Below, piece after piece: positions 8,668 to 13,627 of a stretch of DNA of 54,076 nucleotides (within the stretch, counting starts at the first letter, position 1; each line of letters starts with the position of its first letter). The stretch covers positions 1-54,076 of the IMG/VR virus record IMGVR_UViG_3300044951_001863. One strand, 5' to 3'. The DNA comes from a virus. A program made the position numbers and the translations under genes. The notes below the pieces were generated by a model. That model was not told the origin of the DNA, ran no database searches, and saw nothing but the letters and a program-made list of their open reading frames with translations.

Positions 8668-9732
8668 ATGAGTGAAATTATAATTACTGAACACCAATTA
8701 AAATTAATTAAAGAATCCATCATTAAAGATAAAAATGGTGAGAAAACAATTAATGAGGCGTGGTATAACAATGTGATGGATATTGTCGGTATCATAGACC
8801 CAACACCAATCACCGATTCAATCAATGCTATTTCTTATTTTATACAAGGAGATACCCTTTTTGGTGTCTTAAGTTTAGTAGCTGCGGTTCCATTTTTTGT
8901 TGGTGACATTGTCGCTAAGCCTGTTATGGGAGCAATGAAAATTGGCTCCAAAGCAACAAAAGAATTAGAAGCGGCAATAAAACTATCTAAAACTAATCCT
9001 GCAAAAGCAACTGAAATGATTTCAAGTCTTGCTAAAGACCCAGGACCTGTTGGTAAATTCTTACAAAGTGCTGGTGGTACTGGTGGATGGGCAGAAAAAG
9101 TTAATAGTTTTTTAAAAGAACTTCCTGTGGGACCATTCAAAGGTATGAAGAACACTATTATGGATTATTTCACTTTATTGGGTAGAGCGGGTACTAAAAG
9201 TAAAGGTGTTAGTGGTTTGGCAAAATCATTAGAAGCCGACATGAAGTTAGGTAAAGCTAAAATTCATGATATTCAGGCACTTAAAGATTTGATGAAAGAT
9301 AGTAAAGTATTTGATGTTGCGGCACTATCTAAACCTGGATTTTTGAGTCAAACATTCTTCGGAGGAATTCCAAGAGTGTTCCGAAGCCCTGAAGGTAGAA
9401 GATTAAAGATTATGATGCAGCAAACCAAATGGTGGTTAGGGTTCTTGGATTATATTGGTATTGGAAATTGGGTAGGAGCGGAAGAAGTTATTAAAAAATT
9501 AGGTAGTGAAAATGAAATGATTAAGTCAATGGAAGATTATCAGAAAACTCCCGAATCTAAAGAATATTTTAATCAATCGTTTAAAGAAGGAAACTCACCA
9601 GTAGACCCTATCAAAAATACCGCAGATGATATATCACAGAGTGTGTCAAGTGACAATGTCACAGGTGACCCATTCGCTAAATTCTTAAGAGGTTTATTCA
9701 CGGGACAAGTAAATCCAATCCCTGGAATGTAA
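8668..9732 (+). CDS. Tagged protein with hydrophobic helices, possibly virion-borne
   Basis: 354 residues. The N-terminus MSEIIITEHQLKLIKES carries the I-T-E tag seen in many proteins of this window. Residues around 35-85 (IIDPTPITDSINAISY, then FGVLSLVAAVPFFVGD) form hydrophobic helices resembling the pre-toxin or translocation regions of polymorphic toxins. The rest is helical, Lys- and Gly-rich, ending in a Pro-rich tail. No catalytic motif is visible. It heads an operon with a peptidoglycan-binding protein and a DHH phosphoesterase. I infer a role during DNA entry, such as membrane interaction. Confidence 0.75.
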   Translation: MSEIIITEHQLKLIKESIIKDKNGEKTINEAWYNNVMDIVGIIDPTPITDSINAISYFIQGDTLFGVLSLVAAVPFFVGDIVAKPVMGAMKIGSKATKELEAAIKLSKTNPAKATEMISSLAKDPGPVGKFLQSAGGTGGWAEKVNSFLKELPVGPFKGMKNTIMDYFTLLGRAGTKSKGVSGLAKSLEADMKLGKAKIHDIQALKDLMKDSKVFDVAALSKPGFLSQTFFGGIPRVFRSPEGRRLKIMMQQTKWWLGFLDYIGIGNWVGAEEVIKKLGSENEMIKSMEDYQKTPESKEYFNQSFKEGNSPVDPIKNTADDISQSVSSDNVTGDPFAKFLRGLFTGQVNPIPGM

Positions 9733-11881: not shown

Positions 11882-12021
11882 CTTTAGAAAACATAATAGT
11901 ATTTGAATTTTTATTTGACATTTCAATAATATTATTGTATTTTTAAAAAAAAGGACATATTTATATGTTCATGTCCGAAAGGACAAACACCCCAGAAAAT
12001 GTTTCGCGGTTAAAAAAAGAT

Positions 12022-12052
12022 TTGACAGTTCAAAAAAACTTTCCTATCTTTG
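12022..12052 (+). promoter_or_regulatory. Bacteroidetes-type promoter P1 of the stable-RNA block
   Basis: TTGACA at 12022-12027 and TATCTTTG at 12045-12052, with 20 bases between TTG and TA: a full match to the Bacteroidetes -33/-7 consensus. It drives the leader and the two tRNA genes. Confidence 0.88.
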
Positions 12053-12060
12053 TGAAACAA

Positions 12061-12110
12061 ATCCCGCAAGTGTGAGTTTGAGAAAACCCTTGTAGCTTGT
12101 GGGATTTTTT
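12061..12110 (+). promoter_or_regulatory. Leader hairpin with T-run before the tRNA genes
   Basis: ATCCCGCAAG (12061-12070) pairs with CTTGTGGGAT (12096-12105), one G-U, followed by six T. Alone it looks like a terminator or attenuator. It is followed at 12118 by a boxA-like motif, so it may be a leader structure read through by antitermination. Confidence 0.6.
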
Positions 12111-12117
12111 ATCTGAA

Positions 12118-12129
12118 GTTCTTTAAAAT
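12118..12129 (+). promoter_or_regulatory. boxA-like antitermination motif 1
   Basis: GTTCTTTAAAAT resembles the rRNA-leader boxA (E. coli GCTCTTTAACAAT). It lies 12 bases before the first tRNA. Two similar motifs follow at 12521 and 12708. Confidence 0.5.
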
Positions 12130-12140
12130 AATGATATATC

Positions 12141-12211
12141 GCGAGGGGGAGGTAAGGTATCTCACTGGTCTCATAAGCCAGTCCAAGTCGGTTCGTTTCC
12201 GGCCCTACGCA
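12141..12211 (+). tRNA. tRNA with CAT anticodon (Met or Ile2)
   Basis: The anticodon stem CTGGT/GCCAG encloses CTCATAA, so the anticodon is CAT. The T arm is GTCGG, TTCGTTT, CCGGC. The acceptor GCGAGGG/CCTACGC has one A-A mismatch and a G-U pair; the D arm is short (GAG/CTC). CCA is not encoded. CAT could be elongator Met or, with lysidine, Ile; the sequence alone does not decide. Confidence 0.82.
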
Positions 12212-12226
12212 ACTAACAACAAACAT

Positions 12227-12299
12227 CGTGGGATAGAGCAGTTGGCAGCTCGTGTGGCTCATAACCATAAGGTCGGAGGTTCGAGTCCTTCTCCCGCTA
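12227..12299 (+). tRNA. tRNA-Met (CAT), possibly initiator-like
   Basis: Acceptor CGTGGGA/TCCCGCT leaves position 1-72 as C-U, unpaired as in bacterial initiator tRNAs. D arm GAGC/GCTC, anticodon stem TGTGG/CCATA around CTCATAA, T arm GGAGG/CCTTC around TTCGAGT. The anticodon stem lacks the three G-C pairs of a true initiator, so elongator Met remains possible. CCA is not encoded. Confidence 0.85.
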
Positions 12300-12327
12300 C
12301 TAATTAAAAAAAAGTTTTAAAAAGTGT

Positions 12328-12358
12328 TTGATTAATTGAAAAGTTATTCATATCTTTG
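12328..12358 (+). promoter_or_regulatory. Bacteroidetes-type promoter P2
   Basis: TTG at 12328-12330, 20 bases, TATCTTTG at 12351-12358. It starts a short untranslated transcript. Confidence 0.8.
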
Positions 12359-12361
12359 TAA

Positions 12362-12460
12362 AACAATTGGAGATAACCCCAAGACCATGAAAGAGGGTGT
12401 GTTATAAAATATGGTTTTTGACTTTGGTCATTAAAAAAATAAACACAAAATTTCTAAAAA
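12362..12460 (+). ncRNA. Putative small RNA or leader after P2
   Basis: No gene. ATAACCCC (12373-12380) can pair with GGG and GTTAT (12395-12405), and GACC (12383-12386) with GGTC (12426-12429). It runs into promoter P3. It may be a small RNA or simply an upstream leader. Confidence 0.35.
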
Positions 12461-12465
12461 AAGAT

Positions 12466-12496
12466 TTGACAGTTCAAAAAAACTTTCTTATCTTTG
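12466..12496 (+). promoter_or_regulatory. Bacteroidetes-type promoter P3
   Basis: TTGACA at 12466 and TATCTTTG at 12489-12496 with 20 bases between TTG and TA. The sequence is nearly identical to P1 over about 30 bases, which suggests duplication. Confidence 0.88.
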
Positions 12497-12499
12497 TAA

Positions 12500-12579
12500 A
12501 CCAAACGGGTAACACTATTTGGTCTTTAACAATCACCGAAATCAAATCTCACTATCGGTAGTAACAGAGTAAGATTGTT
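12500..12579 (+). ncRNA. Putative small structured RNA after P3, with boxA-like motif 2
   Basis: ACCAAA (12500-12505) pairs with TTTGGT (12518-12523). This runs into GGTCTTTAACAAT (12521-12533), differing at one base from the E. coli rrn boxA core. AACAATC (12528-12534) can then pair with GATTGTT (12573-12579), with ACCGA/TCGGT inside. No open frame. It may be a short RNA or an upstream leader for the long RNA. Confidence 0.45.
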
Positions 12580-12600
12580 AGAAAAAAGTTTTATAAAAAT

Positions 12601-12631
12601 TTGACAGTGTCAAAACTTTCATCTACCTTTG
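12601..12631 (+). promoter_or_regulatory. Bacteroidetes-type promoter P4 of the long ncRNA
   Basis: TTGACA at 12601 and TACCTTTG at 12624-12631, 20 bases between TTG and TA. Transcription should start near 12636-12638, just before the first leader hairpin. Confidence 0.87.
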
Positions 12632-12707
12632 TAAAACAATTGAAATGAAGGAAGGGTTAAAATCCCACTTCGGTAAGGTTGACCTTTCCTTCATTAATAT
12701 GAATTAC

Positions 12708-12720
12708 GTTCTTTGAAAAT
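12708..12720 (+). promoter_or_regulatory. boxA-like antitermination motif 3
   Basis: GTTCTTTGAAAAT lies 12 bases after the first leader hairpin of the long ncRNA. It is close to the sequence at the start of many Bacteroidetes rRNA leaders. Confidence 0.5.
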
Positions 12721-13594
12721 ATTATTATCCATTTAGATGTTGATATCAAGACCTTCGGGTTGACATTGAGACTAATTTAATAAACGATAATCGGCTGTAT
12801 ATGGTCGTCAAATAAACCTCGAAAGGGGGATAAAGTGAACCTGTTGTGTTAACAGGATTGCGGTTTCAGAAATGGAACTCGAGTATACAAGTGACATATC
12901 ATCCGACCTTGAGTATTGAGGGCGACGCTTTAGGGAAAGTGGTTGGATGGTTTGGGAATGTGGGTTCCTGAACTGAGTTTGGAAAAACAATAAGAATAAG
13001 TCACAGGGGTCAAGCAAAAAATATTGTTCCAACAATATTATTGCGGACTCCAATATGAGAGGGGACTTAAAACCGAAAGGTAAGTTAGAGAACGAGTGGT
13101 GTCGCTACTAACCTTACAAAACATCTACCAAGGTGTTCGTTTGAAGTAATCTTAAAATATGGAGATAGGGATATCTCACCGAGTAGACAGGTATTTTGTT
13201 GTTCAAAAGATAACGAAGCCTAAGACGGACCTCTACTTGGACTCATCCACAACACAAACCAAACTTTTCAATAGGTGAAAAACTAACAGAAAAACGGAAA
13301 AGTGTTCGTCAGGTGATAACGAAAGTTGCCTACACAGTCACGGGCGGTCCGTGGCACGAAAGAATCCCAAGTTCAATCGTATTTTTACCAAAAACCTCTA
13401 AGGAGTCGAATCCTGAGTTAGCTCGCAAGGTTGAAGAGAGTAGAGTAGTAAGAGAGTGGTTATTACCTTAAGGAGTGATTAGTCTAACTAATCGGCAATG
13501 AGGATTACTATCCAAAAGATAGTGGAAACGAAGGGAAACAATAATCCTTCTAAAGATTCTCAATAAGACGAGTATTCTCATCGTATTAGCCAAG

Positions 13595-13627
13595 AAGGTG
13601 TTACAGTGATGTAACACCTTTTTTTGT
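13595..13627 (+). terminator. Perfect terminator of the long ncRNA
   Basis: AAGGTGTTAC (13595-13604) pairs perfectly with GTAACACCTT (13611-13620), followed by a T-run. Confidence 0.93.

What the first reader, a model, noticed from the sequence alone, without database searches (positions are those of the whole stretch)
12638..13627. A roughly 990-base protein-free structured RNA next to two tRNA genes
The sequence shows a full promoter, many hairpins with UUCG and GAAA loops, no supported gene on either strand, and a perfect terminator. Known giant phage RNAs (GOLLD, ROOL) have similar size, ornate folding and tRNA neighbourhood. Membership in either, or in a new class, is inference.
Basis: partly seen in the sequence, partly recalled or inferred. 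Interest (0 to 1): 0.93.

Follow-up and report, generated by a model that had tools for sequence, protein, structure and literature searches.

The report
Phage GOLLD RNA with rRNA-like leader
The stretch is a new member of GOLLD, a known family of giant phage RNAs that build hollow RNA cages; comparing it with about 270 relatives suggests that most of this lineage is transcribed with the signal bacteria use for ribosomal RNA, and that GOLLD genes sit unusually often beside an initiator tRNA gene.

Summary
In detail: 12638-13627 is a ~990-nt, protein-free structured RNA with its own promoter and terminator. It is GOLLD: Rfam RF02032 matches 13179-13584 over the full model at 323 bits (gathering score 150). 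The 5' domain that Rfam does not model (12792-13177) is also conserved; 44 diverse homologs support 20 helices by covariation (96.5% of cells paired, 0/500 shuffles reach it). Long-range pairs and a self-complementary loop used in the published 14-mer cage are kept.

Two things I did not find in the literature available here. (1) A boxA antitermination element (GTTCTTTGA, 12708) lies at the 5' end in 39 of 66 GOLLD clusters (0 after shuffling). It is identical to boxA in Bacteroidota rRNA operons. The adjacent tRNA unit also has a promoter-hairpin-boxA leader. (2) The tRNA nearest GOLLD is an initiator type in 25 of 45 clusters; elongator-Met tRNAs gave 0 of 64.

Best model: an RNA nanocage made through rRNA-style transcription, possibly linked to phage translation. 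The function is inference.

The parts
12021..12052 (+). Bacteroidota-type promoter of the tRNA unit (TTTG...TATCTTTG)
   Evidence: pattern scan; same promoter type in Bacteroidota rRNA leaders
12059..12108 (+). leader hairpin of the tRNA unit, followed by a U-run (possible attenuator)
   Evidence: z = -4.2; region conserved in relatives
12118..12128 (+). boxA of the tRNA unit, GTTCTTTAAAA
   Evidence: same 11-mer as a Legionella CRISPR-array boxA (PMC7862264)
12141..12211 (+). CAU tRNA, atypical second family, 30.3 bits
   Evidence: relatives lie just downstream of other GOLLD genes
12227..12300 (+). initiator-type CAU tRNA (C1xU72, no 1:72 pair)
12327..12358 (+). additional Bacteroidota-type promoter
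12465..12496 (+). additional Bacteroidota-type promoter; the ~100 nt behind it hold a boxA-like GGTCTTTAACAA (12521) and a hairpin
12600..12631 (+). promoter of GOLLD (TTTG...TACCTTTG)
12644..12695 (+). leader hairpin in front of boxA
   Evidence: z = -4.6; matched only in close relatives
12708..12719 (+). boxA antitermination element GTTCTTTGAAAA
   Evidence: identical core in Bacteroidota rrn leaders and spacers
12792..13177 (+). GOLLD 5' domain (cap), 20 covarying helices, last one a GGGA-loop hairpin 13162-13177
13179..13584 (+). GOLLD 3' domain (ring), Rfam RF02032 full model
   Evidence: 323.2 bits, E 7.5e-92
13247..13250 (+). 5' flank of the linker that pairs with the 5'-domain hairpin loop 12960-12963 (inter-domain contact)
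   Evidence: 100% paired, 39 cells with double change at slide -1
13251..13295 (+). A-rich variable linker, enclosed by pseudoknot 13224-13229/13305-13310; no tRNA inside here
13406..13409 (+). self-complementary UCGA loop in the position of L21a (published 14-mer bridge B8)
   Evidence: PMC12286853
13592..13627 (+). intrinsic terminator

Best explanation
A GOLLD RNA gene of a (probably Bacteroidota) phage. Shown: family membership; a two-domain fold kept by covariation in both halves; its own promoter, leader hairpin, boxA and terminator; a neighbouring initiator-type tRNA unit with the same promoter-hairpin-boxA leader. Inferred with good support: host NusB/S10-type antitermination acts at boxA so that this ~1 kb untranslated RNA is made in full and in quantity, as rRNA is; the RNA then self-assembles into the published 14-mer hollow cage. 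Inferred weakly: the cage serves phage translation (for example by holding or presenting initiator tRNA, other tRNAs or ribosomal particles), which would explain the genetic link to initiator tRNA.
For: Rfam GOLLD 323 bits over 1-416/416. 5' domain covariation: 105 pairs, 96.5% of cells paired, 83 pairs with changes on both sides against 54.1 +- 3.2 shuffled, slid versions 36-44% paired. Long-range contacts: 13224-13229/13305-13310 99.6% paired with 136 double changes; 13326-13330/13494-13498 99.5% with 111; loop 12960-12963 with linker flank 13247-13250 100% with 39. Interface loops switch together: GC loop with GGCA loop 96 sequences, UCGA with CGCAA 26, one mixed GC/CGCAA; this includes the GC/CG switch published for bridge B8 (PMC12286853). 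boxA at the expected distance: exact GTTCTTTGA in 39/66 clusters against 0 shuffled, GNTCTTTRA in 49/66 against 3; the same GTTCTTTGA stands before 16S and 23S in Persicobacter and Aureibacter rrn operons. Initiator tRNA: nearest tRNA in 25/45 clusters; of non-redundant cluster-by-tRNA-type combinations 27/87 within 500 nt against 13/314 beyond, Fisher p = 4e-11. Independent scan of phage tRNAs: GOLLD within 500 nt of 8/47 initiator clusters against 0/64 elongator-Met clusters (p = 7e-4).
Against: No expression or binding data exist for this RNA. The Streptococcus-type GOLLDs, which have another 5' domain, lack boxA at this position, so boxA is not universal. About two thirds of GOLLD lineages with full flanks show no initiator tRNA within 500 nt, although ARAGORN missed some. 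In loci with several tRNAs, shuffling tRNA labels within each locus explains much of the signal (28 observed, mean 24.8, 63 of 2000 shuffles as high). Literature reports GOLLD as dispensable for production of one Lactobacillus prophage (cited in PMC7567579).
Confidence: 0.8

Rival explanations
1. The GTTCTTTGA motif is not boxA but the 5' strand of a structural element of GOLLD (for example a closing stem with the AGGGAU/GGGGAC segment near 13167-13172).
For: RNAalifold paired these columns; the motif is almost invariant, as tertiary elements can be.
Against: The proposed partner is the loop and closing pair of a hairpin with strong covariation of its own (13162-13177). The proposed stem has three U-G pairs and no double changes. 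The conservation runs on into the unpaired UGA. The same 9-mer stands in front of rRNA genes of the same phylum, and a boxA-like motif stands in front of the neighbouring tRNA unit.
Confidence: 0.15
2. The initiator tRNA link is hitchhiking: both genes simply share a stable-RNA island with rRNA-like promoters and have no joint function.
For: GOLLD lies in tRNA islands in general; boxA units sit side by side in the window; within-locus label shuffles reduce the excess.
Against: The excess is specific to initiator tRNA and falls steeply with distance (15/31 under 100 nt, 13/57 at 100-500 nt, 14/341 beyond). The tRNA stands upstream in some lineages and downstream in others, with at least 3 switches of side and 23 state changes in all on the GOLLD tree. 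Elongator Met tRNAs show nothing.
Confidence: 0.45
3. The adjacent tRNA serves only as a processing signal (RNase P or RNase Z) that cuts the ends of GOLLD.
For: In many loci the tRNA starts 2-18 nt after GOLLD or ends 19 nt before it, so the two are probably co-transcribed.
Against: Any tRNA would do, yet initiator types dominate. In the window GOLLD has its own promoter and terminator and the tRNAs lie 339-428 nt upstream of it.
Confidence: 0.2
4. A new class of giant RNA, or ROOL.
For: Only the 3' half is matched by Rfam.
Against: 323 bits to GOLLD over the full model and no ROOL match. The 5' half is found together with the GOLLD 3' domain in many loci.
Confidence: 0.01

Closest known systems
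GOLLD RNA (Rfam RF02032; env-38 cryo-EM 14-mer, PMC12286853)
   Same: Full-length match of the conserved 3' domain; ~1 kb; 5' domain plus 3' domain with A-rich linker; phage-borne next to a CAU tRNA (env-38 was found downstream of a Met-tRNA); self-complementary L21a-like loop.
   Different: Window clade has UCGA/CGCAA loops instead of the commoner GC/GGCA pair; 5' domain not in Rfam; rRNA-like hairpin-boxA leader, which I did not find described; no tRNA in the linker.
ROOL RNA
   Same: Giant phage RNA near tRNAs; forms a cage (PMC12286853).
   Different: No covariance-model match here.
boxA of bacterial rrn operons and CRISPR arrays (PMC5725501, PMC7862264)
   Same: GTTCTTTGA(A) before a long untranslated RNA, in the order promoter-hairpin-boxA; identical core in Persicobacter and Aureibacter rrn.
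   Different: Would drive a phage structural RNA; no experiment yet.
Uncultured huge phages LR756502 and LR745206 (634-642 kb)
   Same: GOLLD at 67-71% identity and the upstream 470-aa DHH-like protein at 39-46%.
   Different: Different phages; no annotation or host given.

Membership tests
GOLLD (RF02032) | 3' domain scores above the gathering threshold (150 bits) | tested here: met
   323.2 bits, model 1-416/416
GOLLD (RF02032) | Long RNA (many over 800 nt) with a 5' domain beyond the Rfam model | tested here: met
   ~990 nt from promoter to terminator; 5' domain homologous in 171 loci
GOLLD (RF02032) | Compensatory base changes across homologs | tested here: met
   0/500 shuffles reach the observed values
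GOLLD (RF02032) | Phage-borne, near tRNA genes | tested here: met
   IMG/VR virus record; two tRNAs at -339 and -428 nt
GOLLD (RF02032) | Self-complementary dinucleotide in L21a (bridge B8) | tested here: met
   UCGA in the window; GC or UCGA in 128 of the 137 sequences long enough to score; position assigned by alignment, not from coordinates
GOLLD (RF02032) | Forms a D7 14-mer cage | not testable with these tools
   needs RNA
GOLLD (RF02032) | 5' domain homologous to that of env-38 | not tested
   the env-38 sequence could not be fetched
ROOL | Rfam ROOL match | tested here: not met
   no ROOL hit at gathering or at E <= 5
boxA element | Matches the host-phylum rrn boxA, unpaired, near the 5' end of an untranslated RNA | tested here: met
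   host phylum itself inferred from promoter type
boxA element | Binds NusB/S10 and prevents Rho termination | not testable with these tools
   experiment needed
Initiator tRNA (tRNA2, 12227-12300) | No Watson-Crick pair 1:72 | tested here: met
   C1xU72
Initiator tRNA (tRNA2, 12227-12300) | Three consecutive G:C pairs in the anticodon stem | tested here: not met
   two of three (UGG/CCA); several other GOLLD-linked tRNAs have all three; hence 'initiator-type' only

The most novel reading that the evidence does not exclude
GOLLD cages are a phage translation-initiation device: made through the rRNA antitermination pathway and working with a phage initiator tRNA, which would give the first functional clue to a giant RNA whose role is still unknown.
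Probability: 0.25. Interest if true: 0.88.

Novelty: new member of a known kind. Interest (0 to 1): 0.57.

Why it matters
The function of GOLLD is unknown although its 14-mer cage structure is solved. The boxA element suggests that most lineages of this type use the host's ribosomal-RNA transcription machinery, and the repeated, position-flexible pairing with initiator tRNA genes points to translation. Both ideas can be tested with simple mutants.

Tried and rejected
Sigma-70 promoter scan: no excess over shuffles; the promoters are of the Bacteroidota type. RNAalifold's stem between the boxA motif and GGGGAC: replaced by a covarying hairpin. ORF-free gaps beside initiator tRNAs in phages without GOLLD: tRNA arrays, not ROOL or another known giant RNA. 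Degenerate tRNA remnants at every GOLLD: only a handful more found with a profile. GOLLD in cellular genomes: the pattern hit only Streptococcus genomes, so no host for the window lineage. Streptococcus test of a Gram-positive boxA 17-mer recalled from memory: no match. Plasmid search: the hits listed cover only the initiator tRNA. A candidate contact 12848-12850/13378-13380 was noise (61% paired). My first initiator classification included a second CAU family (GGAGGTAAGGTATCTCA); counts were redone without it.

Full report
OBSERVATION. The stretch 12638-13627 lies between a Bacteroidota-type promoter (12600-12631, TTTG...TACCTTTG) and a 14-bp intrinsic terminator (13592-13627). It contains no ORF longer than 81 aa on either strand and folds better than 20 of 20 shuffles (z = -6.7). 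Two CAU tRNA genes lie upstream.

IDENTITY. Rfam's GOLLD model matches 13179-13584 over its whole length with 323.2 bits (gathering 150). Rfam covers only the 3' domain. Pattern scans of IMG/VR plus a few phage records gave 273 loci with a GOLLD 3' domain, 82 clusters at 90% identity. Of the loci held, 171 also have a near full-length match to the window's 5' domain.

5' DOMAIN. Forty-four representatives of the 5' domain (window 12702-13178; alignment A1) support 20 helices: 96.5% of cells paired, 83 of 105 pairs with changes on both sides (shuffled 54.1 +- 3.2), covariation 0.566 against 0.231, no shuffle of 500 as high, slid structures 36-44% paired. The structure was derived from the same alignment, which favours it over slid versions, but not to this degree. 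A mutual-information scan of 119 longer sequences, both domains included, and explicit counts add non-nested contacts. The pseudoknot 13224-13229/13305-13310 encloses the linker. 13326-13330/13494-13498 is a second. The third joins the two domains: a 5'-domain hairpin loop (12960-12963) with the 5' flank of the linker (13247-13250). I could not check which of these are already described in the cryo-EM paper or which are inter-chain.

CAGE FORMATION. It cannot be tested here. The loop in the L21a position of the solved GOLLD carries GC in 100 sequences and UCGA in 28, in both cases self-complementary; 9 of 137 scored sequences have something else. The neighbouring loop switches with it (96 GC+GGCA, 26 UCGA+CGCAA, one mixed). 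The paper reports the GC/CG switch as support for the inter-chain bridge B8. The window belongs to the UCGA type. The assignment of L21a is mine, by position.

BOXA. The first near-invariant block of the 5' domain is CGTTCTTTGAAAA (window 12707-12719). Across 218 loci in 66 clusters the exact 9-mer GTTCTTTGA stands 400-560 nt before the 3' domain in 39 clusters (0 in shuffled DNA), and the looser GNTCTTTRA in 49 (3 shuffled). The gamma-proteobacterial boxA consensus is GYTCTTTAANA (PMC5725501). In rRNA operons of two Bacteroidota (Persicobacter, Aureibacter) GTTCTTTGA stands 122-138 nt before 16S and again about 1.8 kb after the 16S start, in the 16S-23S spacer; Flammeovirga and Chryseobacterium leaders did not show the exact motif, and the Bacteroides record held too little leader to tell. 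In the window GOLLD has promoter, hairpin, boxA; the tRNA unit upstream has promoter (12021), hairpin (12059-12108), boxA (12118), tRNAs; Persicobacter rrn shows the same order of promoter and boxA. I read this as rRNA-type antitermination. GOLLDs of the Streptococcus type do not have it at this position. No held paper joins GOLLD and boxA in this sense (the four hits are plant papers), but the original 2009 description of GOLLD is not in the library, so novelty is not certain.

INITIATOR tRNA. The nearest tRNA within 500 nt of GOLLD is of initiator type (CAU, 1:72 not a G:C pair, second CAU family excluded) in 25 of 45 clusters; the next types have 3 each. Its share of cluster-by-type combinations falls from 15/31 (under 100 nt) and 13/57 (100-500 nt) to 5/123, 3/107 and 6/111 farther out; Fisher p = 4e-11, but clusters are related and the p-value is nominal. 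Shuffling labels within each locus gives mean 24.8 clusters against 28 observed (63/2000), so the signal rests partly on loci with few tRNAs. An independent scan starting from phage initiator tRNAs found GOLLD within 500 nt in 8 of 47 clusters; the matched scan of elongator Met tRNAs found 0 of 64 (p = 7e-4). That control may sample other phages. On the GOLLD tree the initiator tRNA comes and goes and changes side. The cryo-EM paper notes a Met-tRNA upstream of env-38 and tRNAs in some linkers; no held paper discusses GOLLD with initiator tRNA in this sense. In the window, tRNA2 lacks the 1:72 pair but has only two of the three classical G:C pairs, so I call it initiator-type; tRNA1 belongs to a second CAU family whose relatives also lie next to GOLLD.

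MECHANISM. Shown: gene structure, family, fold conservation. Well supported but untested: rRNA-style antitermination and cage assembly. Weak: a role in translation. The cage could hold or present tRNAs or ribosomal particles; the paper itself suggests tRNAs and ribosomes as cargo. Simple hitchhiking of stable-RNA genes is more likely than the specific initiation-device reading at present.

HOST. Inferred Bacteroidota from promoter type and boxA form; the nearest named records are unannotated huge phages. A GOLLD with the same score against the window query as the window itself lies on a 145.5-kb contig (L073), so the 54-kb window is probably a fragment of a larger genome.

VERDICT. Finding confirmed; the RNA is a new GOLLD. 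What lifts it above routine annotation is the boxA leader and the initiator tRNA link, both comparative results that need experiments.

Noticed in passing
window ORFs at 8668, 9756, 23809-, 24203-, 24530-, 25769-, 26053-, 33884, 43849, 48970, 50194, 51032: A dozen or more unrelated proteins share an N-terminal peptide such as MKYIITEsQyxxL or LTEsDLxxLVRRVIxE; it resembles capsid-targeting peptides cut by a T4-type prohead protease, which would make them packaged and injected proteins.
   Followed up: partly
window 12141-12211; L130, L131, L137, L150, L006, L126: A second family of CAU tRNAs (GGAGGTAAGGTATCTCA...) is repeatedly next to GOLLD; its identity (Met or lysidine Ile2) is unclear.
   Followed up: partly
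L115 and L230: tRNA-Ser and tRNA-Asn genes fall inside the GOLLD span, as reported for some linkers.
   Followed up: no
window 13251-13295 and flanks: The linker's 5' flank AUCNACNACA is conserved in 100 of 147 sequences although the linker stretch itself varies from 39 to 82 nt; part of it pairs with the 5' domain.
   Followed up: partly
window 12327-12592: Two more promoters with short downstream segments (about 100 nt each) between the tRNAs and GOLLD; parts are conserved in relatives and may be small RNAs or tandem leaders.
   Followed up: partly
L510-L516: In cellular genomes the pattern found GOLLD only in Streptococcus; the boxA type of this lineage seems confined to phage contigs in the collections searched.
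   Followed up: no
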